NCBI RefSeq assembly: GCF_000722875.1
Contig: NZ_JFHR01000001.1
Location: 186,001-250,000, forward strand
Reading direction: 5' to 3'
Length of the DNA: 64,000 bases
From: Sphingobium chlorophenolicum
Lineage (GTDB): Bacteria; Pseudomonadota; Alphaproteobacteria; Sphingomonadales; Sphingomonadaceae
Below are positions 2,792 through 34,534 of this stretch, piece after piece. Under the pieces are notes generated by a model, which worked only from the letters and a program-made list of their open reading frames with translations, was not told the DNA's origin and did no database searches. Both the position numbers and the translations under genes were made by a program. Position 1 is the first letter of the stretch, and each line of letters starts with the position of its first letter.

Positions 2792-3356
2792 TTTTGGGCG
2801 ATGAATACAAGCGGTTGAATAGCTTTCAACGCTGGACTCCAAGGCTGGGCAGGCAGCCCGTTCGCTGCATCTGCCCTCCGAGGTCATCCCTTTTCAGCGA
2901 ACACTGGGATCGTACCTAAGATCGTGCGCTGGCCACCTGCGCTTTGCAGCTTCCGCCCCAATTCAGCGATGCGTCGTTCGCCGTCCTCTTACGTCAGTGT
3001 ACTCCTTCGATGGGGCTGGCGGACTTGCACAGCTTGGCAGGCTTGGTGGACGGCCTGCGATCTGCTGATCGGTGAAACTGACGACAGGCAGGCAATGGCG
3101 CGATAGGGTGAGTATTACGCCCGCGCCCGCAGTTCGTCGATCATGCATTTGTGTTGCCCATAACCTGCTCTCGATCTTGGGCCATCCGGCCGGAGCTGAT
3201 CCGGTCAATCTGATGATCGAGCCGAAGTCCATCGATACACTCAGGAGCCTTACGTAGTGACGTTGCCAGTCGGCGCGGTGATGGTGACCACAAAAGAGGT
3301 GGCTGGGTGAAACCTTGAGGCGGCCTCTGGCACCTTACGCAAGCTGGAGATGAGCT
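2792..3356. other. 565-bp gap between conjugation module and hypoxia island
   Basis: No convincing intact gene. A minus-strand reading frame between about 2990 and 2884 encodes a protein-like tail (contains RRIAELGRKL and ends VFAEKG) with an in-frame stop immediately upstream, so it may be a decayed gene end. The right part carries the TTACGTAG box (3250-3257) and then the PEP synthase ribosome-binding site GGAGATGAGCT. I see no tRNA, integrase or clear attachment-site repeat. Confidence 0.5.
3250..3257 (+). promoter_or_regulatory. TTACGTAG box upstream of ppsA (candidate FixJ site)
   Basis: TTACGTAG followed by TGAC, ending 99 bases before the ppsA ATG. The same 8-mer occurs upstream of the genes at 15575 and 21351, each followed by YGMC. 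It matches 7 of 8 positions of the GTAMGTAG core described for Sinorhizobium FixJ, and a FixLJ pair is encoded at 18861-21288. Binding is inference. Confidence 0.45.
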
Positions 3357-5738
3357 ATGTCCAAGCCGATGATTTTGTGGTTCGAAGACATCGGTATCGC
3401 TGATGTGCAGGCCGTAGGCGGCAAGAACGCGTCTTTAGGCGAGATGACCGCGGCCCTCGCTCAGAAGGGCGTGAAGGTGCCCTCTGGCTTTGCCACCACT
3501 GCGGACGCTTACAGGGCGTTCATTCACGACAATGAGCTTGCACCCCGCATTACGGAACATCTCTCCGCCTTCCACTCCGGCGGATGCACCCTTCAGGAAG
3601 CGGGGCAGGCTATAAGGAGTCTGTTTCTGGAAGCGGAAATGCCCTCCCATATCGCCGAGGAGATTGTGTCCGCTTATGCGGAACTTGGCCGGCGTACCGG
3701 CACAGAGCGTCCCGCCGTTGCCGTGCGCAGCAGCGCGACCGCCGAAGATCTGCCGGATGCGAGCTTCGCGGGCCAGCAGGAAACCTTCCTCAATGTCCGG
3801 GGCCGGGCCGCACTTCTGGCGGCCTGTCGTCGATGCTTCGCCTCGCTGTTCACCGATCGCGCGATCAGTTACCGCGATGCGAAAGGCTTCGATCATCTCG
3901 AGGTTGCGCTGTCGATCGGCATTCAGCAGATGGTCCGCTCGGACCTGTGCGGATCGGGCGTCATGTTCTCGATCGATACCGAAACTGGCTTTCCAAATGC
4001 TATCGTCATCAGCGCCGCCTGGGGGCTGGGCGAGACCGTCGTCCAGGGGAGCGTAAACCCGGACAGATATGTCGTATTCAAACCGCTTCTCGCGCAGCCG
4101 GGGACCGAACCGATCATCGACAAGGAGTTGGGCGGTAAGGCGTTCCGCATGGTCTATGGGGAAGGCGGAAGCCACCGTACGAGGATCGTCGAGACAACCG
4201 AGCAGGAGCGTCAGAGCTTCGTTCTCGATAACAGCGATATCGTCCAGCTCGCGCGGTGGGCCGTGGCAATCGAGGACCATTACCAGCGTCCCATGGACAT
4301 GGAATGGGCGAAGGACGGCGAGACTGGTGAACTCTACATCGTCCAGGCGCGTCCCGAAACGGTTCAGGCCCAGGCCAGCACTTCGACATTCCGGCATTAC
4401 CGCCTCAAGGAGAAAGGCGACCCGCTATTGACGGGCGCGGCGGTGGGAACAGCCATCGCTGCTGGCAAGGCTTGTGTCATCCGGACCGCCGCCGACATCG
4501 CCCAGTTCCGGGACGGGTCTATTCTCATCACTGAGACGACTGACCCCGATTGGGTTCCGGTCATGAAACGCGCGGCGGGGATCGTGACCAATCATGGCGG
4601 CACCACCAGCCACGCTGCCATCGTCAGCCGCGAACTCGGTGTTCCCGCAATCGTCGGCACCGGAAACGCGACCGAGATCATTGCCGAGAACAGCGAGATC
4701 ACGATCAGCTGCGCTGACGGTGACGTCGGAACAATCTACGCCAGCATACTCGATTTTTCCGTGACGGACGTGGATATCGGCTCCCTGCCGGCCACCCGGA
4801 CGGACATCATGGTCAATATCGCGAACCCGGCGGCGGCATTCCAGTGGTGGCGGCTTCCTGCCCGAGGGGTCGGCCTTGCGCGCATGGAGTTCATCATCAA
4901 CGCGCATATCAAGGTGCATCCGATGGCACTGGTTCACCCGGATCGCGTGAGCGCTGAAGCTCAACGGCAAATACGCGATCTGACCAAGGGGTATTCCGAC
5001 CCATCGGAGTTTTTTGTCGATGTCCTCGCGCGCGGCATCGCGAAGCTTGCAAGTCCCTATTACCCGCACCCCGCCATCGTGCGCCTGAGCGATTTCAAAA
5101 CGAACGAATATGCGCACCTTGTGGGCGGCGACGCCTTCGAGCCGGATGAGGAGAATCCGATGCTCGGCTTCCGCGGCGCCTCGCGCTATTACGATGAACG
5201 GTATCGCGAAGGCTTCGCTCTCGAATGCCGCGCGCTCAAGCGGGTCCGGGAGGAACTGGGCTTCTCGAACGTCATCGTCATGGTCCCCTTCTGCCGCACG
5301 CCGGCCGAGGCGGATCGCGTGCTCGAAGCGATGGCCGAGAACGGTTTGCGCCGCGGGGAGAATGGGCTGCAAATCTACATGATGTGCGAGATACCCTCGA
5401 ACGTCATTCTCGCCGAGCAGTTCGCTACGCGCTTCGACGGATTTTCCATCGGCTCCAACGACCTCACCCAGCTTGTGTTGGGTGTCGACCGCGATTCCGG
5501 GATTCTGGCCAATCTCTTCGATGAAAGAGACGAAGCCGTCACCCGCATGATCTCGGAAGCCATTCGCAAGGCGCACGCGGCGGGCATCAAGATCGGCATA
5601 TGCGGCCAGGGGCCGAGCAACCATCCGGACTTTGCGGCGTTCCTGATTTCGGAGGGTATCGATTCCATGTCGCTCAATCCCGACAGCTTCGTGCGAACGA
5701 TCAAGGCCGTCGCGGAGGCGGAGGGACAATCGGGCTGA
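3357..5738 (+). CDS. ppsA: Phosphoenolpyruvate synthase (pyruvate, water dikinase)
   Basis: A 793-residue enzyme that makes PEP from pyruvate and ATP (releasing AMP and phosphate), the usual length for PpsA. The N-terminal ATP-grasp nucleotide-binding domain starts with GGKNASLGEM. The central swivelling domain has NHGGTTSHAAIVSREL with the phospho-accepting His419, and the C-terminal PEP/pyruvate TIM barrel contains SIGSNDLTQLVLG and the catalytic Cys749 in GICGQGPS; both residues lie where E. coli PpsA has them (421 and 751). GGAGATGAGCT precedes the ATG. A TTACGTAG box lies about 100 bases upstream. In this context it probably redirects pyruvate to PEP under oxygen limitation (inference); with PEP carboxykinase at 48683 the window holds two PEP-node enzymes. 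Confidence 0.95.
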   Translation: MSKPMILWFEDIGIADVQAVGGKNASLGEMTAALAQKGVKVPSGFATTADAYRAFIHDNELAPRITEHLSAFHSGGCTLQEAGQAIRSLFLEAEMPSHIAEEIVSAYAELGRRTGTERPAVAVRSSATAEDLPDASFAGQQETFLNVRGRAALLAACRRCFASLFTDRAISYRDAKGFDHLEVALSIGIQQMVRSDLCGSGVMFSIDTETGFPNAIVISAAWGLGETVVQGSVNPDRYVVFKPLLAQPGTEPIIDKELGGKAFRMVYGEGGSHRTRIVETTEQERQSFVLDNSDIVQLARWAVAIEDHYQRPMDMEWAKDGETGELYIVQARPETVQAQASTSTFRHYRLKEKGDPLLTGAAVGTAIAAGKACVIRTAADIAQFRDGSILITETTDPDWVPVMKRAAGIVTNHGGTTSHAAIVSRELGVPAIVGTGNATEIIAENSEITISCADGDVGTIYASILDFSVTDVDIGSLPATRTDIMVNIANPAAAFQWWRLPARGVGLARMEFIINAHIKVHPMALVHPDRVSAEAQRQIRDLTKGYSDPSEFFVDVLARGIAKLASPYYPHPAIVRLSDFKTNEYAHLVGGDAFEPDEENPMLGFRGASRYYDERYREGFALECRALKRVREELGFSNVIVMVPFCRTPAEADRVLEAMAENGLRRGENGLQIYMMCEIPSNVILAEQFATRFDGFSIGSNDLTQLVLGVDRDSGILANLFDERDEAVTRMISEAIRKAHAAGIKIGICGQGPSNHPDFAAFLISEGIDSMSLNPDSFVRTIKAVAEAEGQSG

Positions 5739-6034: not shown

Positions 6035-7048
6035 ATGTCTGCCGTATCTGCCTTTCCATCCTTCTCCCAGCCCCGAATGTCCGCGAAGACATCCGGCGTC
6101 GTCGCGTGCATCGATTGCACCGATCGCAACGCGTGGATCTATCCACACGCTCTTGCTCTGGCTTCAACGCTCGACGTTCCGGTAACGCTGCTTCAGGTCT
6201 TGGACAGAGACGCGTCGCCCGACGCACGGCCTGACCCCATCGAGTGCAATCTTCGTCGCCGCGAGGCCATGCGGGTGCTCGATCGTTGTGCTGCGACGAT
6301 CGAACCGTCCTCATCTCAAACGACCATTGAGCTCGCAGAAGGACCGGCGGCGGAGGAAATCTGCCGGTACGTGCGGGAGTGTGACGAAGGGATGGTCGTG
6401 CTGGGCAGGCGCGGACGAAAGGAAGCCGGCCGCGACGGCGTCGGGGGCACAGTCCACAAGGTGCTGTCCCAGGCACCAGGCCCTGTCCTGCTTGTTCCGG
6501 TGGAAGCGCCCGTCCCGGGTTCGGCCTATCGACGGATCGTGGTGCCGCTCGATGGCTCGCGCTGGGCCGAAAGCGTGCTGCCCCTTGCGGTGCGCCTCGC
6601 GAAGGCAGCCGACGCTGAGCTGCTGCTCGTTCATGTCGTCCCCACGCCCGAAATGATCCAGGCGCGACCCCTGGAAACCGAAGACGAGACGCTGCGCGAA
6701 AACCTGATCGAACGCAACGAGCAGGCCGCGCGCAGCTATCTGGATCGGACCAGGTCCAATCTTTCGGCGATGGGCCTTCGCGCTCGCGCGATTGTCATCC
6801 GTGGCGGCGACGTTCGCGACACGCTTTGCGCGTTGATCGATCGCGAAGCGGCTGATCTCGCGGTGATGTCCGCACGCGGGCACGGGCATCAGCATGTCAG
6901 GGACGTCCCGTACGGAACGGTTGCCTCCTATCTGATGGCCCATTGCAGTGTCCCGATGCTCGTCCTGCCTTCGGCGAGTCGCAAGGCGCAAATGACTTCG
7001 CCTGCCGCCAGCCAGAGCGTGAGATTGCCAACGGCCATTCAGGTCTGA
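6035..7048 (+). CDS. Universal stress protein, tandem UspA domains
   Basis: A 337-residue cytosolic protein with two UspA domains. Domain 1 (about 20-165) ends with VVLGRRGRKEAG and GPVLLVPVE. Domain 2 (about 170-325) starts with YRRIVVPLDGS, has the ATP-loop-like VMSARGHGHQHV and ends with SVPMLVLPS. Tandem USPs are typical of oxygen-limitation regulons and usually act as nucleotide-binding survival factors; the precise role here is unknown. The start is fixed by AGGAGGTTTTCCTATG. The stop is immediately followed by TTG-ATG of the cyclic glucan synthase gene, so the two are likely co-transcribed. Confidence 0.9.
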   Translation: MSAVSAFPSFSQPRMSAKTSGVVACIDCTDRNAWIYPHALALASTLDVPVTLLQVLDRDASPDARPDPIECNLRRREAMRVLDRCAATIEPSSSQTTIELAEGPAAEEICRYVRECDEGMVVLGRRGRKEAGRDGVGGTVHKVLSQAPGPVLLVPVEAPVPGSAYRRIVVPLDGSRWAESVLPLAVRLAKAADAELLLVHVVPTPEMIQARPLETEDETLRENLIERNEQAARSYLDRTRSNLSAMGLRARAIVIRGGDVRDTLCALIDREAADLAVMSARGHGHQHVRDVPYGTVASYLMAHCSVPMLVLPSASRKAQMTSPAASQSVRLPTAIQV

Positions 7049-7051
7049 TTG

Positions 7052-10000
7052 ATGGCCGATTATGAGGAGCGCGATCCGCTCGCCGGGGCGGCGGAGGAGG
7101 TCGCCGACCGTCATCGCCTGACAGGACTGCTCGGCAAGTCGGTGCCGCTGCCCGCATGGGCGCATCTCGAGGAGATGAAGACCTGGCTGAGGCAGGCCCG
7201 ACAGGCGGCCGCCAAGGCCGACAAGCGCGCAGGCGCCGCGGCTGAATGGCTGCTCGACAACGATTATCAGATACAACGCGCCATCCTGCAGATCCGCGAG
7301 GATCTTCCCGGAGAGTTCTACGCGAAACTTCCGGCGATCTCCGGGGACGGGCTCGGTCGCCCTCGCGTGCATCAGCTTGCCCATGCCTTGCTGCAGGCTT
7401 CTCACCTGCAGGTCTCGCTGAATGGCGCGGTGCTGTTCGTAGAGCAATATCAAAAGAAGATGCCGCTCAGCATCGCCGAGACCTGGGCCTTCCCGACCAT
7501 GCTGCGCATAGTCTGCCTGGAATTGCTCATCGGAGGTTTCAGCCACCTCTTCCCGGAGGTCGAGCCGCCCTTTGAGATCGTCGAGACGCCCGACACGGCG
7601 ATGGTTGGTTTTGACGATACGGAATGCGTCGCGCGCGCAATCGCGAACCTTGGCGTGATCGCGACGATTCAATGGAACGACTTCTTCGATCGAACGAGCC
7701 AGGTCGAAGCCATCCTCCGGCGCGACCCGGCAGGCGTCTATCCACATATGGACTTCGATACGCGCGATCGATATCGCCATGCGGTCGAGCAGCTTGCCGA
7801 CCAGTCGGGACTCCCGGAATGGGATGTCGCCGAGCGTGCCTTGCGCCAGTGCTATAGCAGCGACGAAGCGCCATCGGGCCATGTAGGCTTCTGGCTCATC
7901 GATATCGGACGGCCTGCCTTTGCCGACGCGATCGATCCTCGTCCATGGACGCCGGGCTCGATATTGCGACGCGCGCTGCGTTATCCAGGCCTGCTTTATG
8001 CAGCCGCCTTGCTGCTCGCGGGCCTTGCGGGCTTTGCTCTACCCGCAGCCTATCTGGTTTCCACCGGCGCCACCGCCGGATCCTGGCTTCTAGGGATCGC
8101 GCTCACCCTGCTACCCGCATCGATCCTGAGCATCACCTTCGTCAATTGGCTCGTGACCCACATCGTTCGGCCGAACGTACTCCCCAAGCTCGATTTCAAG
8201 GACGGCATCCCCGAAAGTTCGGCGACGGCAGTCGTGATGCCTGTCTTGGTCGCGCGATTGTCGGATATCGCGCCGCTGCTTCGGCGCCTGGAGGCACACC
8301 GCCTTTCCAATCCCGATGCCGCGCTCGAATTCGTGCTGCTCAGCGATTTCGCCGATGCGTCACAGGAAAGTGTCTCGGTCGATGCCGATATCGTTCGCGC
8401 GCTGACCAGCGGGATCGAGGAACTCAACGCGCGCTTTGCCAATGCCAAGGGACATGGGCCGTTCCATTTGCTGCATCGGCCACGACGGTTCAACGCGGCC
8501 CAGGGCTGCTGGATGGGCTGGGAGCGAAAGCGCGGAAAGCTTGAGCAGTTCAACGCCTTCATCCTGAACGGAGATGCGTCCCCCTTCAATGTGACCGTCG
8601 GTAGCATCGAACGGTTGCGGCGATGCCGTTTCGTGATGACGGCCGATGCCGATACCAGGTTGTCGGCCGGCATCGTCCGGCGACTGGTGGGGACGCTATC
8701 TCATCCCCTTAACCGCGCCCACTTCAACGCTGCGACCGGCGCGGTCGAACGAGGATATACGGTTCTTCAGCCGCGCGTTGAGCTGGCGCCGGAAGCGACC
8801 GGCCAATCCTTGTTTTCGCGCCTCTATGGCGGTGACACGACCATCGATATCTATTCGCGCGCCGTATCCGACGTCTATCAGGATCTGCTCGGCACAGGCG
8901 TCTACGTGGGCAAGGGCCTCTATGATGTGGCGGCCTTTCATCGGAGCCTCGAAGGGCGCGTTCCCGAGAATACACTTCTCAGCCATGACCTGTTCGAAGG
9001 ACTGCACGGGCGAGCGGCGCTGGTCAGCGATGCGATCGTTTATGAGAGCTTCCCGACCAGCTATCTCGACTTCACCTGGCGCTGGCACAGATGGGTCCGT
9101 GGGGACTGGCAGATCCTGCCATGGCTCTTTCCCTTCGTGCCCGGCGGCGATGGCCGATGGCTGCGCAACCGGCTCGGCTGGTTCGATCGGCTGAAGATAT
9201 TCGACAATTTGCGGCGCAGCATAATTCCAGCGAGTATTGTGGCGCTGCTGGTGGGTGGATGGTTTCTTCTCCATGGGCAGCCCTGGGTCTGGACCTTGCT
9301 TGCCGTCATCGCGCCCGGTGCATATCTCTTTACGGACCTCGTGACCGGCCTCGCGCAGGGCCGCCGCCGCGGCGTCATGCAGAACCTGCTGCGACGTCTG
9401 GCGGATCACGCGGGTCGCTGGTTTCTCGCTATCGTCTTTCTCGTCAGTGACGCGATGATAGCGCTGCATGCCATTGCCATCACCCTATGGCGTCTCCATT
9501 CGGGCCAAAGAAAGCTCGAATGGACGTCGGCCGCCCACATGGCGACGCGCAACGCGGCGCGACATCCGCGACTGGCGGCATGGCGTGACATGGCCGCCTC
9601 TCCGGTGTTCGCGCTGATCATCGGCGCGGGTCTGTTCCTTGCGGCGCCCGCTTCCCTGCCTGTCGCGGCTCCCCTGCTGCTGCTCTGGTTCATTGCGCCT
9701 GAGATCGCGATCCGGATCAGCCGTCCGATTGAGCCGGCAAAGGACACGCTGTCCGAAAACGATCGAAAGTTCCTGAGACTGATGGCGCGGCGCACCTGGC
9801 TCTTTTTCGAGACCTTTGTGCGCCCCGAGGACAACTGGCTGCCACCCGATAACTATCAGGAGCCGCCCGACGAGGAAATCGCGCACCGAACCTCGCCGAC
9901 CAACATCGGAATGATGATGGTATCGGTCCTCACTGCCTGGCGCCTCGGACATATCGGCCTCAACGAGGTTGCGACACGGCTTCACAACACGCTCGATACG

Positions 10001-13000
10001 TTGGATCGCCTGGACCGCTACCGCGGCCATATTCTCAACTGGTACGAGACGAGAACGCTCGCGGCCCTGGAGCCCCGATATGTTTCGACCGTCGACAGCG
10101 GAAATCTCGCGGTCAGTCTGATCACCGTCGCGCGAGCCCTTCAGGAAGCCAGAAGCTTGCCACCGGTCGCCACGGATTTGTGGCGAGGGTTTGACGACAA
10201 TATCGAGTTGCTCGCCGAAGCGATTGCGACGATCGACCTCGAAGCGGCCTCCGCCGCCGGCTCGATCCTTGAGGCTATGCGGGAAACCGCCCGCAGGATT
10301 GAGGAAGGGAGGCAAGACTGGGCCGAGAGGATCGACGATCTCCTGTCGATCGATCTTCCTCGCCTGCGCGAGCAGATTACCCTGATGGCCGAAAGCGTCG
10401 GCGAGGATGAAATCGCCTCCCTGCGGAATGTCCAAGCCTGGCTGGAGCGGCTCGAACATCATCTGTCCGGCATGCGGCGAGACCTTCGGCTGTTCTCGCC
10501 CTGGTGGGAGACGCTCGCGGCGCATCCGGCAGAGTGTTCGAACGTCGCGGCAAAAGTCGCCGACCTGTTGGCGAACGACCGGCTGCCGTCCACGCACGCG
10601 GGCGCCGCGGCAGCAATTGGCGTCCTCAATGCGGCGAGAGACCAGCTACCGGCGGAAAGCCGGCAATGGGCGCACGATCTCCAGGCGGCGATCGAGGAAG
10701 GCCAGGCGGCCCGGCAAGCGCTTCATGACCGCCTCGATGACCTCTCCAGTCGCGCTAACGCCGCCGCGCACGCCATGGACTTCTCGTTCCTGTTCGATGC
10801 CGGCAGCCGGCTCTTTCATATCGGCTACAATGTGAGCGCCGATCGAATAGATCCGCACCACTACGATCTGCTCGCCAGCGAAGCACGCCTCGCCAGCTTT
10901 TTCGCCATCGCGAAGGGCGACATAGAGCCTCTGCACTGGTTCCATCTCGGGCGGCCCATCACCAAGCAGCACGCAGGCCTGGCGTTGATATCGTGGAACG
11001 GCTCGATGTTCGAATATCTGATGCCGAACATCTTCCTGCAGAGCGATCCCCAAACCCTGCTCGGAATGAGTGACCGGACCGCGATTGCTATCCAGATCGC
11101 ATTCGGGCGGTCACATGATATGCCTTGGGGTATTTCGGAGTCGTCCTTCGCATCGATGGGCGAGGACCGCGTCTACCGATATCACGCATTCGGCGTCCCT
11201 GCGCTCGGCCTCCAGCGAGGTCTGGGGCGCGATCTGGTTATCAGCCCCTATGCGACGGCGCTGGCGCTGACGATCCGGCCCGCGCTGGCGACGCGCAACC
11301 TTCAAACTCTGGCGGATCTTGGCCTCATCGGCCGATACGGATTTTTCGAAGCGGTCGACTTCACGCCCGAGCGGGCGCCTGACGGTGAACGCTTTGCCGT
11401 CGTGCGCTCCTACATGGCTCATCATCATGGCATGAGCCTTGCCGCGCTCGGAAACGCGTTGTGCGATGACATGCTCGTGCGCTGGTTCCACACCGATCCT
11501 CATATCCGCACCGTCGACCTGCTCCTTAACGAAAGGATTCCATGGGAGCTGCCGCCCGAGATCGCGCGGCTTGAGGTTCGTGAGCCACAGCCGGAACCCG
11601 ACGAACTGATTCCGGGCCTTTACGGCTGGGCACCCACTCGGCGCCGTGGGGAGCACGCGTGGCAGATTCTCGGCAATGGCCGGCTTTCGAGCCGCATTCG
11701 GACAGACGGTGCAGGTGGGCTGAGCTGGAACCAGCATGCCCTGACCCGTGGGGACGCAGGTTTCTGGATCTATCTGCACGACCGGGATGCAGATGTTACC
11801 TGGTCGGCAACGGGCGGCCCCTTTTCTCGACCCGAAGACGCGCCGGAGGTGATCTTCCAAGCGCATCAGGTGGAGTTCCACCAGCGCGCCCACGGCTTGT
11901 CGGTCACGACAACGATCAATGTCGCCAATGCCGACGACCTGGAGATCCGGCGTGTCGCTCTTGTCAATGATAGCGATAAGCCCCGGACCATCGAAGTCAC
12001 GGGCTACGCGCAGATCGTTCTGGCTCCGGCCCAGGACGCGGCGCGCCACCCTGCCTTCAGCAAGCTGTTCGTGGGGGCGGAAGCCTTGCCTGGCAATGAC
12101 GGCCTGCTTTTCACGCGGCGGCCGCGCAGTTCGGCGGAACGTCCGCCCGTCCTGCTGACCCGTGTGATCGGGGATGAAGATGGCGTTACCCTGCTCGGTC
12201 TCGAAGCCGATCGCAGCGCTTTCATCGGACGATATGGGTGCCCCAGGCGGCCCGCATTGTTGACCGGGGAACTGCCTGGTGGCCCGCTCGGCTGGACGCT
12301 TGATCCGATCTGCGCGATCAGGATGACGGTGGAACTGCCTCCGCGCGCGCGACGTGAATTCGCCTTCGTCACCATTGCGGCTGGATCCCGGCAATCGGCC
12401 CTCGAACTTGCCGAGCGCTTTACCACCCTGCCGTCACTCGACTGGGCTGTGAGCGATACGGCAAGTGCGGCGGCGCGCGAGATGCACAAGCTGGGCCTGC
12501 AGCCGCACATCGTGCCGCAGGCGCAGGCGTTGCTGTCCACTCTTCTCACCAGAGCGGCAGAGCCGGGATCGGCCGGCGCGCGCACATTTCGGCGCGGGGA
12601 CCTTTGGGCGCTCGGGATATCGGGCGACCATCCTATTTTGATGCTGCGTTCCGGAACCGCGGAGCAGCAGGACCTGCTTCGACAGCTTCTCTCCTTCCAC
12701 AAGCTCATGCGGCAGCGTGGTATGCCGATCGACCTGGTGGTGACGCATGAAGGAACGTCGGGCTATATCGAGCCCGTCCGCGAGCGTCTTCTGGAAGTGC
12801 TGAAGGATGCCGGGCTACAGGATCGCCTTGGCACCCATGCCGGGATACACCTCGTCGGCATCGGTCCATCCGATGGCGAGCGGGCGGCGCTTCTCGATCA
12901 GGTTGCCCGCCTCATCCTTGACGAAGCCGGCGGCAGCCTAGTCGACCAGCTTGCGCGATACGACCAGCCGCCGCATCCGGGCCCGCTGTTCGCGCCGGTC

Positions 13001-15502: not shown

Positions 15503-15510
15503 TTACGTAG
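15503..15510 (+). promoter_or_regulatory. TTACGTAG box upstream of the small coiled-coil gene
   Basis: TTACGTAG followed by CGCC, ending 64 bases before the ATG at 15575. Same 8-mer as at 3250 and 21301; candidate FixJ site by analogy. Confidence 0.45.
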
Positions 15511-24228: not shown

Positions 24229-24264
24229 CTGGCGAACCCGTCTAACGGTTGAACGGAGGAGATC

Positions 24265-26870: not shown

Positions 26871-27784
26871 CGGCGATGCTGTTTTCCATGCCCGGGAACG
26901 AACGGCTGGCCGCATCCATCGCGGAACATACCGGGTGGGCGACAGGCACGCTCGAGGTTCGCCGGTTTCCCGATCAGGAGAGCTATGTCCGGCTCCGCTC
27001 CGGGGTGTCGGGATCAGCCGTGGCCGTCATATGCACGCTCGCGCGGCCCGACGACCAGATCATGCGGCTGCTCTTTGCTGCAAGGCTGCTGCGCGAGAGC
27101 GGGGCGCGGTCGGTCCATCTCGTGGCGCCTTATCTTGCCTATATGCGACAGGATCGGCGGTTCAAGGATGGCGAAGCGCTGACGTCCCGCCAGTTCGCCC
27201 AGCTCCTTTCATCCGAGTTCGATGGGCTCGTGACCGTCGATCCGCATCTCCACCGCTACGCGGATCTGGGGGAGATCTATTCGATGGAGACGGCTTCGCT
27301 CGCGGCATCTCCGCTTCTGGCGGACTGGGTCCGGGCCAATGTCGATGCACCGCTCATCATAGGACCCGACAGCGAGAGCGAGCAGTGGGCGGGCGCAATC
27401 GCCAGGCTTATCGGAGCGCCCCATGCGGTCTTCGCGAAATCGCGGCGCGGTGATCGGGACGTCCTTATCGCGGCCTCGGACCTGGGGGCATGGAAAGGCC
27501 GCACGCCGATCCTCGTCGATGACGTGATTTCGTCGGGACACACCCTTGCCAACGCCGCGCACGAGATCATCGACCAGGGCTTCCCTCCGCCGATCTGCCT
27601 GGCTGTTCACGGCCTCTTCGCGGCTGGTGCCGAGGCTTTGCTCAGGGAAGTCGGCTGCCGCATGGTTACGACCGAAAGTATCTCGCATGCCAGTAACGCG
27701 ATCACTCTTGGCGCACTGCTTGGCGATGCGCTGGCCCGGCAGATGGAAGGGGGCGCCGGTCGGCTACGTATAACACCCGAATGA
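26867..27784 (+). CDS. prs: Ribose-phosphate pyrophosphokinase (PRPP synthetase)
   Basis: A 305-residue enzyme converting ribose 5-phosphate and ATP to PRPP and AMP. Features: RRFPDQESYVRL (ATP-binding region), YLAYMRQDRRFKDGE, VDPHLHR (catalytic/metal-binding His), FAKSRRGDRDV (flexible loop) and the PRPP loop ILVDDVISSGHTL. It is slightly shorter than the housekeeping enzyme (about 315) and is probably a second copy. ATGA overlap with the phosphorylase gene indicates tight coupling: PRPP synthetase makes AMP, and the upstream enzyme may consume AMP. A CTACGTAT word lies in its last codons. Confidence 0.9.
   Translation: MTAMLFSMPGNERLAASIAEHTGWATGTLEVRRFPDQESYVRLRSGVSGSAVAVICTLARPDDQIMRLLFAARLLRESGARSVHLVAPYLAYMRQDRRFKDGEALTSRQFAQLLSSEFDGLVTVDPHLHRYADLGEIYSMETASLAASPLLADWVRANVDAPLIIGPDSESEQWAGAIARLIGAPHAVFAKSRRGDRDVLIAASDLGAWKGRTPILVDDVISSGHTLANAAHEIIDQGFPPPICLAVHGLFAAGAEALLREVGCRMVTTESISHASNAITLGALLGDALARQMEGGAGRLRITPE
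27764..27771 (-). promoter_or_regulatory. Near-match box (ATACGTAG on minus strand) upstream of USP gene
   Basis: One mismatch to TTACGTAG, in opposite orientation, within the 3' end of prs and 63 bases before the USP ATG at 27835. Weak candidate. Confidence 0.2.
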
Positions 27785-27834: not shown

Positions 27835-28656
27835 ATGGCTATCAAGGACATTCTCGCCGTCGTCGATACCGGAGACAAGGACGAGCGGTTTTTGCGCGAT
27901 GCGCTTGCCTTTGCCGAGTTCCACGACGCCAGCCTTGCCATCGTCGTGCTGTCGGCTCTCCCCGCGAGCGACTATGCCCTGACGGTTGCACTGCCTTATG
28001 TACTTCTTCCCGATTATACTGAAGCGGTGGAGGCGAAGCAGCAGCGGATCGCGATGCTCGCCCGCTCCACGAACGTAGAGGTGAGGACGATTTCGGACCA
28101 GCCGGCGGTGATCTTCGCCAAGACCGCGGTCTATGCCCGTTATGCCGACCTCGTCCTGTTCGGTCCTTCGGACAATTACGACCATCCGCCAATTCGACGT
28201 GATACGCTTGAGCGTTGCCTGTTCGCATCTGGGCGTCCCGTTCTGATCCTGCCCACCGGCTATAAACCGGCCGCCATCGATCACTTGGCGATCGGCTGGA
28301 ATGCGACCCGCGAGGCGACGCACGCGCTGCGCGACGCGACCATGTTCGCGGCGCCTGGGGCAAGGATCGATATACTCATCCTCGATGCGAAGCCGACGGT
28401 CCAGGGCCACGGTTCCGAACCGGGAGCCGATGTCGCCCACCATCTCGCCCGGCATGGCTTTACGTCGACCGTAGTTCCCATCCAGGGCGGTGACGTGTCG
28501 GATGCGGAGGCGCTGGTCGAAGCGGCTCACCGGCGTGGCGCCGGGATGCTCGCGCTTGGCGCTTATGGCCACTCTCGCCTGCGCGAGATGATCCTGGGCG
28601 GCGTCACGCGCGACCTGCTCACTGGCGCGCCGCTGCCGCTGCTGTTTGCGCATTGA
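27835..28656 (+). CDS. Universal stress protein, tandem-domain
   Basis: A 273-residue USP starting IKDILAVVDTGDKDERFLRDAL and ending with LALGAYGHSRLREMILGGVT and LPLLFAH. Its domain layout matches the USP at 23395. The start is chosen because TGGAGGGACAT lies directly before the ATG; the earlier in-frame ATG (27781) overlaps the prs stop. It lies 50 bases after prs and is followed by a 120-base gap to the cation ATPase gene. Confidence 0.9.
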   Translation: MAIKDILAVVDTGDKDERFLRDALAFAEFHDASLAIVVLSALPASDYALTVALPYVLLPDYTEAVEAKQQRIAMLARSTNVEVRTISDQPAVIFAKTAVYARYADLVLFGPSDNYDHPPIRRDTLERCLFASGRPVLILPTGYKPAAIDHLAIGWNATREATHALRDATMFAAPGARIDILILDAKPTVQGHGSEPGADVAHHLARHGFTSTVVPIQGGDVSDAEALVEAAHRRGAGMLALGAYGHSRLREMILGGVTRDLLTGAPLPLLFAH

Positions 28657-28776: not shown

Positions 28777-31482
28777 ATGTCAGGACCCATGGAAACTTCC
28801 GAAGTGCGCTGGCATATGCTGTCAACCAGCGAAGTTGCCACGGCACTCGACGTCGGTTGTGCGGGTCTCTCTTCTCCGGAGGTGGATCGGCAATCGGCCC
28901 GCTTTGGGCCGAACGCGCTACCCCGGTCGGCGCGTCGCAATGTGTTCCTTAGGTTCCTCGCGCAATTCCATAACACGTTGATCTATGTGCTTCTTGCCGG
29001 GGCATTGGCCGCAGCGCTGCTCGATCACATGATCGACGCGGTGGTCATCGTCGCCGTCGTGATCGTGAATGCGGTGATCGGGCATATCCAGGAAGGAAAG
29101 GCTGAACAGGCGCTTGAGGCCATCCAGCAGATGATCGCGCCCAAGGCCAGCGTGGTGCGTGACGGCGTGAGGCAAACGATTCCCGTCCGCGAGATCGTGC
29201 CCGGCGATCTCGTGATGATCGAGGCCGGTGATCGCGTTCCCGCCGATCTCAGGCTTCTCCATGCGCGGCGAATGCTTATCGACGAGGCGCTGCTGACGGG
29301 CGAATCGGTGGCTGCCGAAAAGCAGGAAGCGGTGCTGCCCGAGCAGACCGATTTGGCGGATCGGCGTAATATGGCCTTTTCGGGCACGATGGTTGCGGCT
29401 GGGCACGCAAGCGGGCTCGCTGTTGCCACCGGATCTCGCACGCAGATCGGACGGATCAGTTCGCTTATCCAGTCGGTCGAACAACTGGCAACCCCGCTGC
29501 TGAAGCAGATCGACGGTTTTGCCCGGCGCTTCACCTGGTTCGTACTCGCGGGGGGGCTTGCGCTGTTCGCCTTTGCCGTTCTGGCGCGGAATTACGATTG
29601 GATCGACGCGCTGATCGCCGTGGTCGCGCTCGCCGTGGGGATCGTGCCGGAAGGGCTGCCGGCGGTCATCACGATTACTCTCGCGATCGGCGTGCGGCGG
29701 ATGGCGGGGCGCAACGCCGTCATCCGAAAGCTCCCGGCCGTCGAAACGCTCGGCGCGACCTCGGTGATATGCACCGACAAGACCGGCACGCTCACACGCA
29801 ACGAAATGACGGCCCGCCGCGTCATCACCGAGCGGCATACGATGATCGCGAGCGGATCCGGCTATGTTCCCGATGGTCAAATCCGGATCGTCGGGTCCGG
29901 GGACCAGGCAGAGGCTATGGCCGATGCGATGCCACTGATCCGCTGCGGGCTGCTGTGCAACGATGCCGCGCTGCGCAAGGTCGGTGCGGAATGGCGTGTC
30001 GAGGGCGATCCGATGGAGGGGGCCCTCTTCGCCCTGGCAATGAAGGCGGCCATCGATCCGGAGCAGGAGCGGGCGGAATGGGAGCGGCTCGACGAGATTC
30101 CCTTCGACGCCGCGCATCGGTTCATGGCGACGCTCTGCCGGGGTTCCAACGGCACGCGCTTGCTGTTCGTGAAGGGCGCGCCCGAAGCGCTCTTGGCGAT
30201 GACCGCGCCCGACAATTGTTCCTATTGGGAGAGTTCCATCGCTACCGCCGGAAGCGATGGCGAGCGCGTTCTCGCCTTCGGCGCGAAGGAAATGCCTGCC
30301 GGCAGCGAACGGATCTCGTTCGAAGATCTCTCGACTGGCGTGTGCCTCCTGGGCCTTGTCGGCTTCATCGATCCGCCTCGTGCGGAGGTCAAGGACGCCA
30401 TCGCCGAATGCCGGTCCGCCGGAATCGGCGTCAAGATGATCACTGGCGATCATGCGGCGACGGCGCTGGCGATCGCCCGGCAACTCGACCTTGCCGACGA
30501 CCCGCGCGTGCTGACCGGGCTGGAACTGGAAAAGCTTCCGGACACCGAACTGGAGCAAGCGGTCGCGGATGTCTCGGTCTTTGCCCGGACCAGCCCGGAA
30601 CATAAATTGCGGATCGTCCGTGCGCTGCAGGCTCAGGGAAAGATCGTCGCGATGACGGGGGACGGCGTGAACGACGCGCCGTCCCTCAAGCAGGCCGACG
30701 TCGGGGTCGCCATGGGCATCAAGGGCACCGAAGCGTCGAAAGAAGCGGCTTCCATGGTGCTGCTCGACGATAATTTTGCCTCGATCGTCAGCGCCGTTCG
30801 CGAAGGCCGAACGGTCTACGACAACATTCGCAAGGTCATTTCCTGGGAAATCCCTACGAACGGCGGTGAAACACTGGCGGTCGTATTGGCGATCCTGCTG
30901 GGCTTCGCGCTGCCGATGACGGCGACGCAGATCCTCTGGGTGAACCTCGTCCTCGCCGCCACGCTCGGCCTCGTGCTGGCGTTCGAGCCCACGGAACCCG
31001 GTGCGATGTTGCGCCGGCCACGGGAGCGCGGCGCGCCGTTGCTTTCGCCGTTCCTGCTTTGGCGTGTCCTTCTCGTCTCTGTGCTGTTCGCGGCCGTCAC
31101 TCTCGGAATCTTTTTCCATGTTCTGGCGCAAGGCCGGAGCCTGGAGATGGCGCGCACCATGGTCGTCAACATGTTCATCATCGCGGAGATCTTCTACCTC
31201 TTCAACGTCCGCTATCTCCACATGACGTCCCTGACATGGCGCGGCGCGATCGGTACTCCCGCCGTGTTGATCGCGATCGGCGTTCTCGTCATCGGCCAGG
31301 CGCTCTTCACCTATGCGCCGTTCATGAACGCGATTTTCCACTCGCAGCCGCTGGGCTTCGCGGACTGGGTGTTGCTGGTGGCGTGCGGCATGCTTCTCAT
31401 GCTGTCGCTGGAGGTGGAGAAGCATGTGATGCGGCGACTGGGCTGGTTTAGCGAACTTAATAATCAGGAGGACATGCCATGA
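28777..31482 (+). CDS. P-type (P2) cation-transporting ATPase, CtpF-like
   Basis: A 901-residue inner-membrane pump. Order: N-terminal cation-ATPase domain, M1-M2 (about 65-105), actuator domain with LLTGESVAAEK, M3-M4 with PEGLPAVIT, phosphorylation motif ICTDKTGTLTRNE (Asp334), MTGDGVNDAPSLKQADVG hinge and six C-terminal TM helices. PEGLPAVIT suggests Ca2+ or a similar divalent ion. M6 reads NLVLAATLGLVLAFEPTEPG, lacking the Asp of the SERCA site and resembling mycobacterial CtpF (from memory), so the ion is uncertain. A TTG precedes the ATG. The stop overlaps the USP start (ATGA), and the USP overlaps a Ca2+/Na+ antiporter gene. Confidence 0.9.
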   Translation: MSGPMETSEVRWHMLSTSEVATALDVGCAGLSSPEVDRQSARFGPNALPRSARRNVFLRFLAQFHNTLIYVLLAGALAAALLDHMIDAVVIVAVVIVNAVIGHIQEGKAEQALEAIQQMIAPKASVVRDGVRQTIPVREIVPGDLVMIEAGDRVPADLRLLHARRMLIDEALLTGESVAAEKQEAVLPEQTDLADRRNMAFSGTMVAAGHASGLAVATGSRTQIGRISSLIQSVEQLATPLLKQIDGFARRFTWFVLAGGLALFAFAVLARNYDWIDALIAVVALAVGIVPEGLPAVITITLAIGVRRMAGRNAVIRKLPAVETLGATSVICTDKTGTLTRNEMTARRVITERHTMIASGSGYVPDGQIRIVGSGDQAEAMADAMPLIRCGLLCNDAALRKVGAEWRVEGDPMEGALFALAMKAAIDPEQERAEWERLDEIPFDAAHRFMATLCRGSNGTRLLFVKGAPEALLAMTAPDNCSYWESSIATAGSDGERVLAFGAKEMPAGSERISFEDLSTGVCLLGLVGFIDPPRAEVKDAIAECRSAGIGVKMITGDHAATALAIARQLDLADDPRVLTGLELEKLPDTELEQAVADVSVFARTSPEHKLRIVRALQAQGKIVAMTGDGVNDAPSLKQADVGVAMGIKGTEASKEAASMVLLDDNFASIVSAVREGRTVYDNIRKVISWEIPTNGGETLAVVLAILLGFALPMTATQILWVNLVLAATLGLVLAFEPTEPGAMLRRPRERGAPLLSPFLLWRVLLVSVLFAAVTLGIFFHVLAQGRSLEMARTMVVNMFIIAEIFYLFNVRYLHMTSLTWRGAIGTPAVLIAIGVLVIGQALFTYAPFMNAIFHSQPLGFADWVLLVACGMLLMLSLEVEKHVMRRLGWFSELNNQEDMP

Positions 31483-32390
31483 CGCGTGACGGTTTCCCTA
31501 AATGCATCGCGCTCGCGACCGACCTCAGCCATCGTTGCGACCGCGCCTTCGATCGCGCCCTGCTGGTAGCCCAGGCATGGCGGGCGGAGCTTATGGTCAT
31601 CCACGCGCTGAACCCGCCGGAAGACGGGATGCTGTCCGTCCGACTCGGCGATCTGCCGTCCTGGCGTCGGCCTCTCGAAGACCCGGTGCGGGCGGCGCGC
31701 CATCGCATCTACCACGACCTTGTTCGCGAGGCGCCGCCAATCGACATTTCGGTCCACGTCGAAACCGGCTCGCCGGCACCGGTCGTCCTCGATATCGCCG
31801 GAAAGGGCGAGGCGGGCCTGATCGTCACCGGCGTGGCTCGCGATGGGCCGCTGGCCCGGATGCTGCTCGGCGATACCGTGGACCGGCTGATCCGCAAGGC
31901 GCCCGTTCCGATCCTGATCGTACGCGACCGCGCTTTCGAGCCTTACCGCGCCATGGTGGTCGCGACAGATTTCTCCGCGCCCGCCCGGATCGCTCTGGAG
32001 ACCGCCGTCCGCTTTTTTCCCGATGCGGCTATCTCCCTTTTCCACGCCTACGATGTGCCCTTCGCGGGCTATCTCGGCCGATCGGAAATCGAACGGCAAT
32101 TCGAGGGTTATGGCGAGGCTGCGGCCGACAAGTTCCTTGCCGAAGCGGGACTGTCTGATGTGGCGGCCCGGAACGTCACGCGCATGATCGAGCACGGGGT
32201 TCCCGAAGCGCTGCTTCGCGACCGTGCGGAAAATGCCGCACGTCACCTGACGGTCGTTGGAACCCATGGCGGTGGCCTCGTCTATGAGGCTATGATCGGC
32301 AGTACGGCGCGCAAGATCCTTGATGCGGTCCCGGGCGATGTCCTCCTCGTACCCGATCCCGCCAGGCGCAAGGTGAACCCGGCCGGATGA
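31479..32390 (+). CDS. Universal stress protein between two ion transporters
   Basis: A 303-residue tandem USP. Domain 1 begins KCIALATDLSHRCDRAFDRAL and has VTGVARDGPLARMLLGDTVDRL and PILIVRD. Domain 2 begins YRAMVVATDFSAPARIAL and has VVGTHGGGLVYEAMIGSTARKIL and DVLLVPD, both with the G-x9-G-S/T type nucleotide loop. It is joined by 4-base ATGA overlaps to the ATPase gene upstream and the antiporter gene downstream, so it is made in step with both. This suggests it may regulate, or be regulated together with, the transporters. Confidence 0.9.
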   Translation: MTRDGFPKCIALATDLSHRCDRAFDRALLVAQAWRAELMVIHALNPPEDGMLSVRLGDLPSWRRPLEDPVRAARHRIYHDLVREAPPIDISVHVETGSPAPVVLDIAGKGEAGLIVTGVARDGPLARMLLGDTVDRLIRKAPVPILIVRDRAFEPYRAMVVATDFSAPARIALETAVRFFPDAAISLFHAYDVPFAGYLGRSEIERQFEGYGEAAADKFLAEAGLSDVAARNVTRMIEHGVPEALLRDRAENAARHLTVVGTHGGGLVYEAMIGSTARKILDAVPGDVLLVPDPARRKVNPAG

Positions 32391-33355
32391 CGCTGGCGAT
32401 CGTTTCCAGCCTCATGGGGCTCGCCGCCCTGATCGCTGGTGCGGAGTGGCTGGTGAGGGGAGGCTCGGCGCTGGCCGCGCGGCTGGGCGTTTCGCCGCTG
32501 CTCATCGGCCTCACGATCGTGGCGCTGGGAACGAGCACGCCCGAACTCGCCGTCGGGATCGAGGCGGCGCTCCAGGGAAACGGCTCGCTCGCGGTTGGCA
32601 ACATCGCCGGCACCAACACCGTCAACATCCTCCTTATCCTCGGCCTCAGCGCGATGCTGCAACCACTTGCCATTCGGATGCAGACGCTGCGTCTGGAACT
32701 GCCTGTCATCGTCATCGCGTCGGCCGCGCTACTCGTCTTTGCCTGGGACGGTGTGCTCTCGCGCCTTGAGGGGCTGTTTTTGATCACGATGGGAATGGCC
32801 TTCACGCTGACCGTCATTCGCGTCGCCCGGCGGGAAAGCATCACGGTGAAGCTGGAGTTCGCGCGGGAATTCGCGGCGCCGCGCTTTTCCCGCCGCCACG
32901 GTTTCTCCGCAATGGCGATGCTGGCCATCGGCCTCGTCGTGATCGTCGTGGGCGCCAACTGGCTGGTGGATGGTGCGGTCGCGCTTGCCCGGTTGTGGAA
33001 CGTATCGGACGCCTTTATCGGACTGACGATCGTTGCGATCGGTACTTCCGCTCCTGAACTCGTTACGACGATCATTTCGACGATTCGTGGCGAGCGCGAC
33101 ATCGCGATCGGCAATCTGATCGGCAGCAGCGTTTACAATATTCTGGTGATTCTCGGCGCGGCCTGCCTGTTTCCGTCGAACGGGATCGAGGTCAGCGCGC
33201 AACTGATCCGGGTCGACATCCCGGTCATGTTGGGGGTCGCGCTGGCCTGCATTCCCGTATTCATCAGCGGACGCCAAATTTCGCGGTTCGAGGGTGGAAT
33301 GTTTGTGAGTGCCTACTTGCTATATCTTGCCTATTTGATCAATGATCGGATTTAA
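32387..33355 (+). CDS. Calcium/sodium antiporter (CaCA family, YrbG-like)
   Basis: A 322-residue inner-membrane exchanger with about ten TM helices in two inverted halves. The alpha-repeats are ALGTSTPELAVGIEAAL with GNIAGTNTVNI, and AIGTSAPELVTTIIST with GNLIGSSVYNI; the acidic residues and GN(L/I)xGxNxxN motifs form the ion site. Length and repeats fit YrbG-type K+-independent Na+/Ca2+ exchangers. The start overlaps the USP stop (ATGA). Together with the P2 ATPase this makes a cation-export operon, plausibly controlling cytoplasmic Ca2+; the ion is inferred from family. Confidence 0.92.
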   Translation: MTLAIVSSLMGLAALIAGAEWLVRGGSALAARLGVSPLLIGLTIVALGTSTPELAVGIEAALQGNGSLAVGNIAGTNTVNILLILGLSAMLQPLAIRMQTLRLELPVIVIASAALLVFAWDGVLSRLEGLFLITMGMAFTLTVIRVARRESITVKLEFAREFAAPRFSRRHGFSAMAMLAIGLVVIVVGANWLVDGAVALARLWNVSDAFIGLTIVAIGTSAPELVTTIISTIRGERDIAIGNLIGSSVYNILVILGAACLFPSNGIEVSAQLIRVDIPVMLGVALACIPVFISGRQISRFEGGMFVSAYLLYLAYLINDRI

Positions 33356-33587: not shown

Positions 33588-33592
33588 CCTCA

Positions 33593-34534
33593 ATGGCGGC
33601 CATGATGAACATCGCGACCCTCACCCTGAACCCGACGATCGACGTCGCCTATGAAGTCGATCATGTCTACCACACCCGTAAAATGCGGACGAAGACAGAA
33701 TTCTATTCGCCGGGTGGCGGGGGAATCAACGTGGCCCGTGTCTATGTCCGGCTCGGCGGGAACGCGCGGAGCTACTATCTTTCGGGCGGTGCAACCGGCC
33801 ACGCGCTCGATGGTCTGCTCGACCTGCACCAGCTGGTGCGCAACCGTATCCCGATCAAGGGGCATACCAGGGTGGCCACCGCAGTGCTCGAGCGCGAAAG
33901 CGGGAAGGAATATCGCCTCGTTCCGTCCGGACCGATGGTCGAACCTGCAGAATGGCGGCAGTGCCTCAATCAGCTCCAGACGGCACAATGTGACTATCTG
34001 GTCGCGAGCGGTTCGCTCTCACCCGGCATTCCGGATGATTTCTATGGCCAGGTCGTCGCGATGATGACGGAACGCAATATACCGGTCGTGCTCGACAGTT
34101 CAGGCGCTGGCCTGCGCGGAGGCCTTGAGCAAGGCGGCGTCTTCCTCGTCAAGCCCAGCATTGGCGAGTTGCGCCAGTTCACCGGTCGGGATCTTCCCGA
34201 CACGGAGTCGGTGGGACGGGCGGCCATGCAGATCGTCGGGGGCGGTCATGCGCAATATGTGGCGGTGACGATGGGGCACGAGGGCGCTCTCCTTGCCTCG
34301 GCCGAGCGCCAACTCCTGCTTCCCGCAGTGGACATCGAGGTCAGAAGCGCGGTCGGCGCGGGCGACAGTTTCCTTTCGGCGATGGTCTTTGCTATCTCCT
34401 CAGGCTGGGAGATCGAAGAAGCGTTCCGCTTCGGCATCGCGGCAGGCGCGGCGGCCGTGATGAATCCGGGGCACGATCTTGCGCGACCCGAAGACATCCG
34501 GCGGCTCTATTCGCAGGTCCGTGCAGCCTCCTGA
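33593..34534 (+). CDS. pfkB: PfkB-family sugar-phosphate kinase (1-phosphofructokinase/Pfk-2-like)
   Basis: A 313-residue ribokinase-fold kinase. It starts with ATLTLNPTIDVAYEV, has the substrate motif SPGGGGINVARV, the PfkB signature 2 region with catalytic Asp in SAVGAGDSFLSAM, and ATP-binding VTMGHEGALLA. The pattern is that of the hexose-phosphate kinase branch (FruK/Pfk-2), most likely phosphorylating fructose 6-phosphate or fructose 1-phosphate. There is no fru PTS nearby. Possible starts are ATG 33593, 33602 or 33605; none has a good ribosome-binding site and the last fits the family best. PfkB is also a member of the mycobacterial DosR regulon. Confidence 0.88.
   Translation: MAAMMNIATLTLNPTIDVAYEVDHVYHTRKMRTKTEFYSPGGGGINVARVYVRLGGNARSYYLSGGATGHALDGLLDLHQLVRNRIPIKGHTRVATAVLERESGKEYRLVPSGPMVEPAEWRQCLNQLQTAQCDYLVASGSLSPGIPDDFYGQVVAMMTERNIPVVLDSSGAGLRGGLEQGGVFLVKPSIGELRQFTGRDLPDTESVGRAAMQIVGGGHAQYVAVTMGHEGALLASAERQLLLPAVDIEVRSAVGAGDSFLSAMVFAISSGWEIEEAFRFGIAAGAAAVMNPGHDLARPEDIRRLYSQVRAAS

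What the first reader, a model, noticed from the sequence alone, without database searches (positions are those of the whole stretch)
3250..34534. FixLJ-centred island with the gene content of a DosR-type dormancy regulon
Seen: heme-PAS FixL (His297/Arg317), LuxR-type FixJ, Hsp20, trHb, four tandem USPs in this stretch, PfkB kinase, P2-type ATPase with a CtpF-like M6, two alcohol dehydrogenases, PEP synthase. Known: the mycobacterial DosR regulon combines heme sensor kinases, a LuxR-type regulator, HspX, PfkB, CtpF and many USPs. Inference: a proteobacterial FixLJ system has assembled an analogous hypoxia-survival regulon, possibly on a mobile element given the conjugation genes at the left edge.
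Basis: partly seen in the sequence, partly recalled or inferred. Interest (0 to 1): 0.75.

Follow-up and report, generated by a model that had tools for sequence, protein, structure and literature searches.

The report
Mobile low-oxygen survival gene island
A stretch of bacterial DNA that has recently moved between related species carries an oxygen sensor together with stress and metabolism genes that it probably switches on when oxygen runs low, so a whole low-oxygen response may travel in one piece.

Summary
The gene content is real: haem-PAS FixL (H297/R317), FixJ, a receiver-only protein, truncated globin, Hsp20, four USP genes, two ADHs, an AMP-phosphorylase/PRPP-synthase-like pair, a Ca2+-ATPase-like P2 pump, Ca/Na antiporter, PfkB and PEP synthase. 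By sensor domain and DNA box it is not DosR. The closest published thing is the Burkholderia lxa locus, whose students already drew the DosR comparison.

(1) The island lies on a large conjugative element integrated at tRNA genes; 74.8 kb is 99.995% identical to another species whose matching chromosome pieces are about 80% identical, so it moved recently. The element also carries cytochrome bd oxidase. (2) TTACGTAG, close to published FixJ sites (GTACGTAG, GTAMGTAG), occurs five times in the 4.58-Mb genome; three of these lie between genes of this cluster. Its core TACGTA lies between fixJ and the receiver gene in 43 of 64 loci. No Crp/Fnr-type gene and no exact FNR box was found on the element.

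Best reading: a mobile, self-contained FixLJ hypoxia module that FixJ drives directly. Regulation and function are predicted, not shown. Sub-modules also occur without fixLJ, and the full set beside fixLJ is rare.

The parts
3..1637 (+). C-terminal part of the TrwC-type relaxase/helicase (TraI-like) of the conjugative element; the frame is open from -1371
   Evidence: AAA_30; TrwC relaxase domain in the part before the window
3250..3257 (+). FixJ-like box TTACGTAG, 100 nt before ppsA
3357..5738 (+). ppsA, PEP synthase
   Evidence: Pfam and NCBIfam above cut-off
6035..7048 (+). usp1, two Usp domains
7049..15463 (+). cyclic beta-glucan-synthase-like protein (GH94, glucoamylase and glycosyltransferase domains)
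   Evidence: name by inference
15503..15510 (+). FixJ-like box TTACGTAG before a 78-codon ORF (15575-15811) and the DksA-like gene
15866..16192 (+). DksA-like zinc-finger protein
16265..17875 (-). APH/AAA_33 kinase-like protein
17826..18320 (-). hsp20
18861..20684 (+). fixL, membrane/PAS-PAS(haem)-HisKA-HATPase; start codon uncertain (open frame 645 aa)
20674..21288 (+). fixJ, receiver plus LuxR-type HTH
21301..21308 (+). FixJ-like box TTACGTAG, the best conserved one, 42 nt before the receiver gene
21351..21782 (+). receiver-only protein, possibly a FixT-like feedback protein (inference)
   Evidence: a receiver gene in 50 of 80 FixL loci
21830..22240 (+). truncated globin
22272..23279 (+). 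adh1, zinc ADH (adh_fam_2)
23395..24228 (+). usp2
24265..25302 (+). adh2, zinc ADH
25437..26870 (+). archaeal-type AMP/thymidine-phosphorylase-like enzyme (frame open from 25299)
26867..27784 (+). PRPP-synthase-like protein
27764..27770 (-). FixJ-like core (TACGTAG on the minus strand) in the last codons of the PRPP gene, 64 nt before usp3; counterparts before usp3 in L074 and L103
   Evidence: not among the top 30 of the second matrix
27835..28656 (+). usp3
28777..31482 (+). P2-type cation ATPase, Ca2+-ATPase-like
31479..32390 (+). usp4, two Usp domains
32387..33355 (+). Na/Ca exchanger-type antiporter
33593..34534 (+). pfkB-family hexose kinase
57250..60446 (+). two ABC-transporter genes, CydDC-like by position beside cydAB (inference)

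Best explanation
A self-contained low-oxygen survival module on a conjugative element of a sphingomonad, very probably Sphingobium. When oxygen falls, FixL loses haem-bound O2, autophosphorylates and passes the phosphate to FixJ (inferred from the known family). FixJ then binds TACGTAG boxes before ppsA, the DksA-like unit, the run receiver-globin-ADH-USP-ADH-AMPpase-PRPP, and usp3-ATPase-usp4-antiporter, and switches them on directly, without a FixK relay on the element (inferred from box positions and from the lack of Crp/Fnr-type genes and exact FNR boxes there). The receiver-only protein behind the most conserved box probably damps FixL, as FixT does elsewhere (inferred). The products would handle O2 or NO (globin), regenerate NAD (ADHs), recycle nucleotide and PEP, protect proteins (Hsp20, USPs) and, with cytochrome bd on the same element, support respiration at low O2 (inferred). 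The element carries sensor and output together between species (shown by sequence).
For: FixL haem-PAS residues and fold family; full-length FixJ. TTACGTAG: 5 places in the genome, 3 intergenic in the cluster; 3 in the window against 0.11 expected; one of only two 8-mers found in three or more of the 15 cluster gaps, binomial p 2.3e-7 over 404 kb. TACGTAG: 23 places in the genome, 4 in this cluster and 1 before the receiver gene of the second fixLJ; the other 18 lie inside ORFs. TACGTA in 43 of 64 fixJ-receiver gaps; 81 TACGTAG places in 1.85 Mb of FixL loci against 1 in 0.54 Mb of flank controls. Published FixJ words GTAMGTAG and GTACGTAG (PMC4999443, PMC13327599, passages). No PF13545 match on the element, no exact FNR box there. 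Neighbour enrichment: USP 28 of 80 against 1 of 27, ADH 21 of 80 against 0 of 27. Element, recent transfer. Same set on plasmid pDB-2.
Against: No expression or binding data. The word was first noticed by eye, so the tests are after the fact. hsp20, fixL, usp1, pfkB and cyd have no exact box. The usp3 site lies in coding sequence and is not in the top 30 of the second matrix. 21 of 64 fixJ-receiver gaps lack TACGTA. The ppsA box has no TACGTAG counterpart before ppsA in pDB-2. The C2 site overlaps a mechanical ORF. Sub-modules occur without fixLJ; hsp20, pfkB and ppsA are rare beside FixL (5, 2 and 0 of 80). Controls come from four genomes and 3 of the 27 stretches overlap an element end.
Confidence: 0.66

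Rival explanations
1. The set does respond to low oxygen, but the host's own Crp/Fnr-type regulators drive it, and FixLJ tunes only the receiver gene or the host regulator.
For: Two strong Crp/Fnr-type HTH genes elsewhere in the genome. In S. granuli TFA a USP gene is Fnr-controlled (PMC7713065, passages). Two Paraburkholderia adh2-USP relatives hold 2 and 3 exact FNR boxes. FixJ's known conserved target is fixK (PMC4999443, passages and section 22).
Against: No exact FNR box on the element; near-matches in the window are at chance (14 against 15.4); FixJ-like words sit before several effectors.
Confidence: 0.14
2. The neighbours are an accessory mix gathered on mobile DNA; FixLJ controls only itself and the receiver gene.
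For: Sub-modules occur apart; 14 of 34 AMPpase places have no FixL within 30 kb; in G008 the effector half is missing.
Against: USP and ADH are enriched beside FixL; TTACGTAG before ppsA and the DksA-like unit as well as the receiver gene; the set recurs on pDB-2.
Confidence: 0.13
3. It is mainly a metal or general stress island, with the FixL homologue sensing something other than O2.
For: RND-efflux-like and ArsR-like genes follow at 38-43 kb; AMPpase-PRPP pairs sit among metal genes on other plasmids.
Against: FixL keeps the haem-PAS residues of known O2 sensors; globin and cytochrome bd are on the same element.
Confidence: 0.07

Closest known systems
lxa (low-oxygen-activated) locus of Burkholderia cenocepacia, BCAM0275-0323 (PMC6127331, passages)
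   Same: Many USPs, alpha-crystallin-type Hsp, phosphofructokinase, electron-transfer and metabolic genes in one locus tied to low-oxygen survival; the DosR analogy was drawn there.
   Different: In the passages seen, regulation is ascribed to an Anr/FixK-type protein, with fixLJ homologues elsewhere (BCAL2210/2211). Here fixLJ is inside the cluster, with FixJ-like words and no exact FNR box on the element. No sequence comparison with lxa was run.
FixLJ-FixK cascades of rhizobia and Caulobacter
   Same: Haem-PAS FixL, FixJ, a receiver-only gene, FixJ-type DNA word.
   Different: No Crp/Fnr-type gene on the element; candidate boxes directly before effectors; on a conjugative element. Described conserved FixJ targets are few (PMC4999443 section 22).
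DosR regulon of mycobacteria
   Same: Content: haem sensor kinase, LuxR-type regulator, Hsp20, USPs, PfkB, P2 ATPase (comparison largely recalled).
   Different: PAS and not GAF sensor; no DosR-box enrichment; different operator.
Conjugative plasmids Sphingopyxis pDB-2 and Sphingomonas MM-1 pISP1
   Same: fixL-fixJ-receiver-globin with the box; pDB-2 also holds the ADH, USP, AMPpase, PRPP, ATPase, antiporter, PfkB and ppsA genes and an ndvB-like gene; pISP1 holds hsp20 and the APH-like gene.
   Different: Plasmids, not tRNA-integrated; order rearranged; no hsp20 hit in the pDB-2 stretch and no metabolic part in the pISP1 stretch read.

Membership tests
FixLJ two-component system | Haem-PAS with the FixL His and Arg, HisKA and HATPase domains | tested here: met
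   haem binding itself not testable; NCBIfam rhizobial FixL score 532, below its cut-off of 850
FixLJ two-component system | Adjacent FixJ with receiver and LuxR-type HTH | tested here: met
   NCBIfam FixJ 250.2, just under its cut-off of 255
FixLJ two-component system | FixJ-type binding word at target promoters | tested here: met
   As sequence only: TTACGTAG at 3 gaps, 7 of 8 letters of published GTACGTAG; binding not tested
FixLJ-FixK cascade | fixK gene as FixJ target | tested here: inconclusive
   No PF13545 match on the element; the two strong matches elsewhere in the genome were not studied
DosR regulon | GAF-domain haem kinases DosS/DosT | tested here: not met
   Pfam finds PAS, HisKA and HATPase only; DosS/DosT domain make-up is recalled
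DosR regulon | DosR box | tested here: not met
   11 matches against 24.6 expected at up to 3 mismatches; consensus recalled
lxa locus | Orthologous gene content and order | not tested
   No lxa sequence was fetched
lxa locus | Up-regulation at low O2 | not testable with these tools
   Needs expression data
FixT feedback inhibitor | Receiver-only protein that inhibits FixL autophosphorylation | not testable with these tools
   Only its position and receiver domain are known; no FixT sequence was compared
Integrative and conjugative element | Integrase beside a tRNA, relaxase, transfer genes | tested here: met
Integrative and conjugative element | Flanking direct repeats (att sites) | tested here: inconclusive
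   Found in 3 of 4 copies (G019, G011, G008); not found in the window's own copy

The most novel reading that the evidence does not exclude
Conjugative elements and plasmids of sphingomonads carry a complete low-oxygen regulon in one package: sensor, regulator, feedback receiver and effectors, with FixJ wired straight to the effectors through TACGTAG boxes and no FixK relay. Related effectors in Burkholderiales carry FNR boxes, so the same output has been plugged into different oxygen regulators.
Probability: 0.48. Interest if true: 0.68.

Novelty: new variant of a known kind. Interest (0 to 1): 0.55.

Why it matters
Low-oxygen survival is usually treated as a chromosomal trait run by a host-wide cascade. 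Here sensor, candidate operators and effectors sit on one element that recently crossed species borders. If FixJ acts directly on these genes, the FixJ regulon is much larger than the fixK-centred one described for rhizobia and Caulobacter, and the question of how aerobic bacteria gain anoxic survival can be tested by removing one gene or one 8-bp box. Sphingomonads are also studied as pollutant degraders in soils that can turn anoxic (recalled).

Tried and rejected
Rejected: DosR membership; control through exact FNR boxes (near-matches at chance; one TTGA-N6-TCAA in the window at 44181) or through a Crp/Fnr-type gene on the element; 'tandem' USPs.

Weak or led nowhere: the S. granuli TFA anoxia papers (PMC7713065, PMC6472365; passages) gave no passage on this gene set; 'FixL' has no occurrence in PMC6472365. 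Two papers holding FixLJ, universal stress, Hsp20 and alcohol dehydrogenase (PMC2908626, PMC6515984) were seen only in a listing and not read. PMC9104464 and PMC7078487 were seen as passages. No left att repeat was found in the window's own copy. Matrix hits without the core word (64054, 82648 and others) were not pursued. Degenerate sites seen by eye before usp1 (5839) and hsp20 (18451) are unproven. Box-like words also occur away from FixL: one in Paraburkholderia L228, two in Variovorax L231, one in Novosphingobium L029. Exact FNR boxes also occur in L230 (1), L231 (2) and L233 (1). Paraburkholderia and Sinorhizobium records carry no usable annotation. Structure prediction and fold search were not used.
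Full report
WHAT IS THERE. The window is part of a 4.58-Mb genome. The stretch 3357-34534 holds ppsA, usp1, a 2804-aa glucan-synthase-like gene, a DksA-like gene, an APH/AAA kinase-like gene, hsp20, fixL, fixJ, a receiver-only gene, a truncated globin, adh1, usp2, adh2, an AMP-phosphorylase-like gene, a PRPP-synthase-like gene, usp3, a P2-type ATPase, usp4, a Ca/Na antiporter and pfkB. From the receiver gene to the antiporter, 11 genes run in one direction with gaps of -4 to 134 nt, so one or a few operons are likely (inference). FixL's second PAS aligns with solved FixL haem PAS domains and keeps H297 and R317, invariant in 12 of 12 aligned sequences. FixJ aligns nearly end to end with a solved FixJ. 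The roles of these residues are recalled.

THE ISLAND IS ON A CONJUGATIVE ELEMENT. FixL is 100% identical (rounded) over 607 aa in the own genome and in G019, G011 and G008, three other genomes of the genus; the G008 score is slightly lower. Own and G011 DNA is 99.995% identical over 74,806 bp (window 5964 to 80,769); own and G019 is 99.66% over 111.7 kb (-12,855 to 98,840). Matching pieces of at least 1 kb outside the element are 75.9-84.8% identical. The element is mosaic: against G019 the left part (-41.7 to -14.0 kb) is 85.6-92.0% and the right part (98.8 to 134 kb) 93.8-97.1% identical. Homology ends at tRNA genes: tRNA-Glu in the own genome (137,094-137,168) with a tyrosine integrase beside it (135,553-136,884), tRNA-Lys in G019 and G011, tRNA-Glu in G008. 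Direct repeats of the tRNA end lie at the left ends in G019, G011 and G008, giving sizes of 191.9, 194.4 and 137.6 kb; the own copy shows none. Transfer and maintenance genes: TrwC relaxase, TraD-type coupling protein, TrbI/TraB, TraK, TraV, TraF, TraG_N, ParB; one further ORF tested had no Pfam match. This is the F-type set; two related plasmids are typed MPF_F. G008's copy shares 5.8-25.85 kb of the window and resumes at 80.6 kb, with only a fragment of the AMPpase gene. Coordinates of G019 and G008 contigs coincide with Sphingobium amiense and Sphingobium sp. TKS records, so the genus is very probably Sphingobium (inference).

A FIXJ-LIKE BOX. Reading the gaps by eye I saw TTACGTAG. It occurs at 3250, 15503 and 21301 and nowhere else in 404 kb of own DNA; the whole genome has 5 places, against 99 strand hits for the reversed word; the window has 3 against 0.11 expected. 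The genome avoids the word, so its real rarity should be used: of 2235 distinct 8-mers in the 15 cluster gaps (2461 bp), only two occur in three or more gaps; this one has binomial p 2.3e-7 over the 404 kb, the other 1.4e-3. The 7-mer TACGTAG has 29 strand hits, 23 places; 4 are in the cluster and 1 lies before the receiver gene of a second fixLJ on contig C2. The other 18 fall inside an ORF of at least 80 codons, three of them short (82, 87, 147 aa); by the same mechanical rule the C2 site also overlaps an ORF. The fourth cluster site (27764-27770) is in the last codons of the PRPP gene, 64 nt before usp3; sites before usp3 also occur in Sphingopyxis pDB-2 and in G025.

CONSERVATION. Of 102 loci examined (80 named, 20 from the genus, pDB-2, the window), 64 have a receiver gene after fixJ. 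In these 64 gaps TACGTA occurs in 43, TTACGTAG in 17 and GTAGCGAC in 22; 21 lack TACGTA. Some loci are near-duplicates. In 100 FixL loci, TACGTAG has 81 places in 1.85 Mb, 44 wholly intergenic; 27 stretches flanking the element have 1 in 0.54 Mb. Those controls come from four genomes, and three overlap an element end. Published FixJ sequences: GTAGTTTCCC and GTAMGTAG by SELEX and the S. meliloti fixK site TAAGTAATTTCCCTTA (PMC4999443, passages); R. palustris FixJ binds a fixK promoter that holds GTACGTAG (PMC13327599, passages). Two matrices built from other loci rank 21301 first and 15503 and 3250 second and third, in one order or the other, in 404 kb; their training sites were chosen for the core, so this is partly circular, and the usp3 site is fourth in one and outside the top 30 in the other. 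On pISP1 a box lies about 200 nt before hsp20; in the window only a degenerate version is seen there (18451).

NO FIXK RELAY ON THE ELEMENT. None of 8 PF13545 matches lies on the element; two strong ones are elsewhere in the genome. The genome's three exact FNR boxes are elsewhere; near-matches in the window are at chance. Two Paraburkholderia stretches with an adh2 relative and USP relatives hold 2 and 3 exact FNR boxes; one of them also has one CTACGTA word. This hints that related effectors are plugged into different oxygen regulators.

HOW GENERAL. Within 10 kb of FixL in 80 named loci (some cut by contig ends): fixJ 78, receiver 50, USP 28 (controls 1 of 27, p 9e-4), ADH 21 (0 of 27, p 1.5e-3), ATPase 11 (0 of 27, p 0.06), APH/AAA 5, hsp20 5, AMPpase 2, pfkB 2, DksA 2, globin 1, PRPP 1, ppsA 0 (controls 1 of 27). 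Hits counted go down to 22% identity for USP and 23% for ATPase in the 62 loci printed. AMPpase has a FixL (E up to 1e-60) within 30 kb in 20 of 34 places in 61 genomes: 20 of 27 in the genus, some misses on short contigs, and 0 of 7 in other genera; one of the 20 is the G008 fragment. USP and ADH neighbours are a real trend. Among the loci I read, only this element and pDB-2 hold nearly the full set. AMPpase-PRPP pairs stand without an annotated fixLJ among metal genes on Paracoccus, Variovorax and Phenylobacterium plasmids. The genome has a second, smaller fixLJ-receiver-AMPpase-PRPP group on contig C2.

COMPARISON. The DosR analogy holds for content and fails for membership. It is in print for the lxa locus (PMC6127331, passages). 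Against FixLJ systems the new points are boxes directly before effectors, no Crp/Fnr-type gene on the element, and packaging on a conjugative element. A comparative study found conserved FixJ sites before four genes in Rhizobiales and only fixK in Caulobacterales (PMC4999443 section 22). Searches on FixLJ with Sphingopyxis, FixJ with integrative elements and hypoxia, Sphingomonas with FixJ, and Sphingobium with FixL and plasmid listed no paper that by title or abstract start reports this; only an open-licence library was searched.

SHOWN AND INFERRED. Shown by computation: gene content, element, recent transfer, rarity and placement of the word, its conservation in the fixJ-receiver gap. Inferred: O2 sensing, FixJ binding, activation rather than repression, a FixT-like role of the receiver, and benefit under anoxia.

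Noticed in passing
   Followed up: partly
25437-27784: An archaeal-type AMP/thymidine phosphorylase paired with a PRPP-synthase-like gene recurs on plasmids of several proteobacterial groups, often near metal genes; its metabolic role is unexplained.
   Followed up: partly
7049-15463: A very large glucan-synthase-like gene starts right after usp1; relatives sit beside a USP gene on two plasmids (L029, L074). Link to low oxygen unexplained.
   Followed up: no
G000 contig C2, 152052-167900: A second fixLJ-receiver group with AMPpase and PRPP relatives in the same genome, with CTACGTAG before the receiver gene; cross-talk with the first is possible.
   Followed up: partly
G000, whole genome: TACGTAG is strongly avoided: 29 strand hits against 449 for the reversed word.
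   Followed up: no
L227 19863 and 22426; L228 19853, 19920 and 23086: Paraburkholderia relatives of adh2 with neighbouring USPs carry exact FNR boxes.
   Followed up: partly
L232 (Sphingomonas MM-1 pISP1): The plasmid with linC, a lindane-breakdown gene, also carries hsp20-fixLJ-receiver-globin with two boxes.
   Followed up: partly
38278-42850: RND-efflux-like pair and an ArsR-like regulator follow the island.
   Followed up: no
1644-2237: Mrr-type restriction endonuclease-like protein between the relaxase and the island.
   Followed up: no
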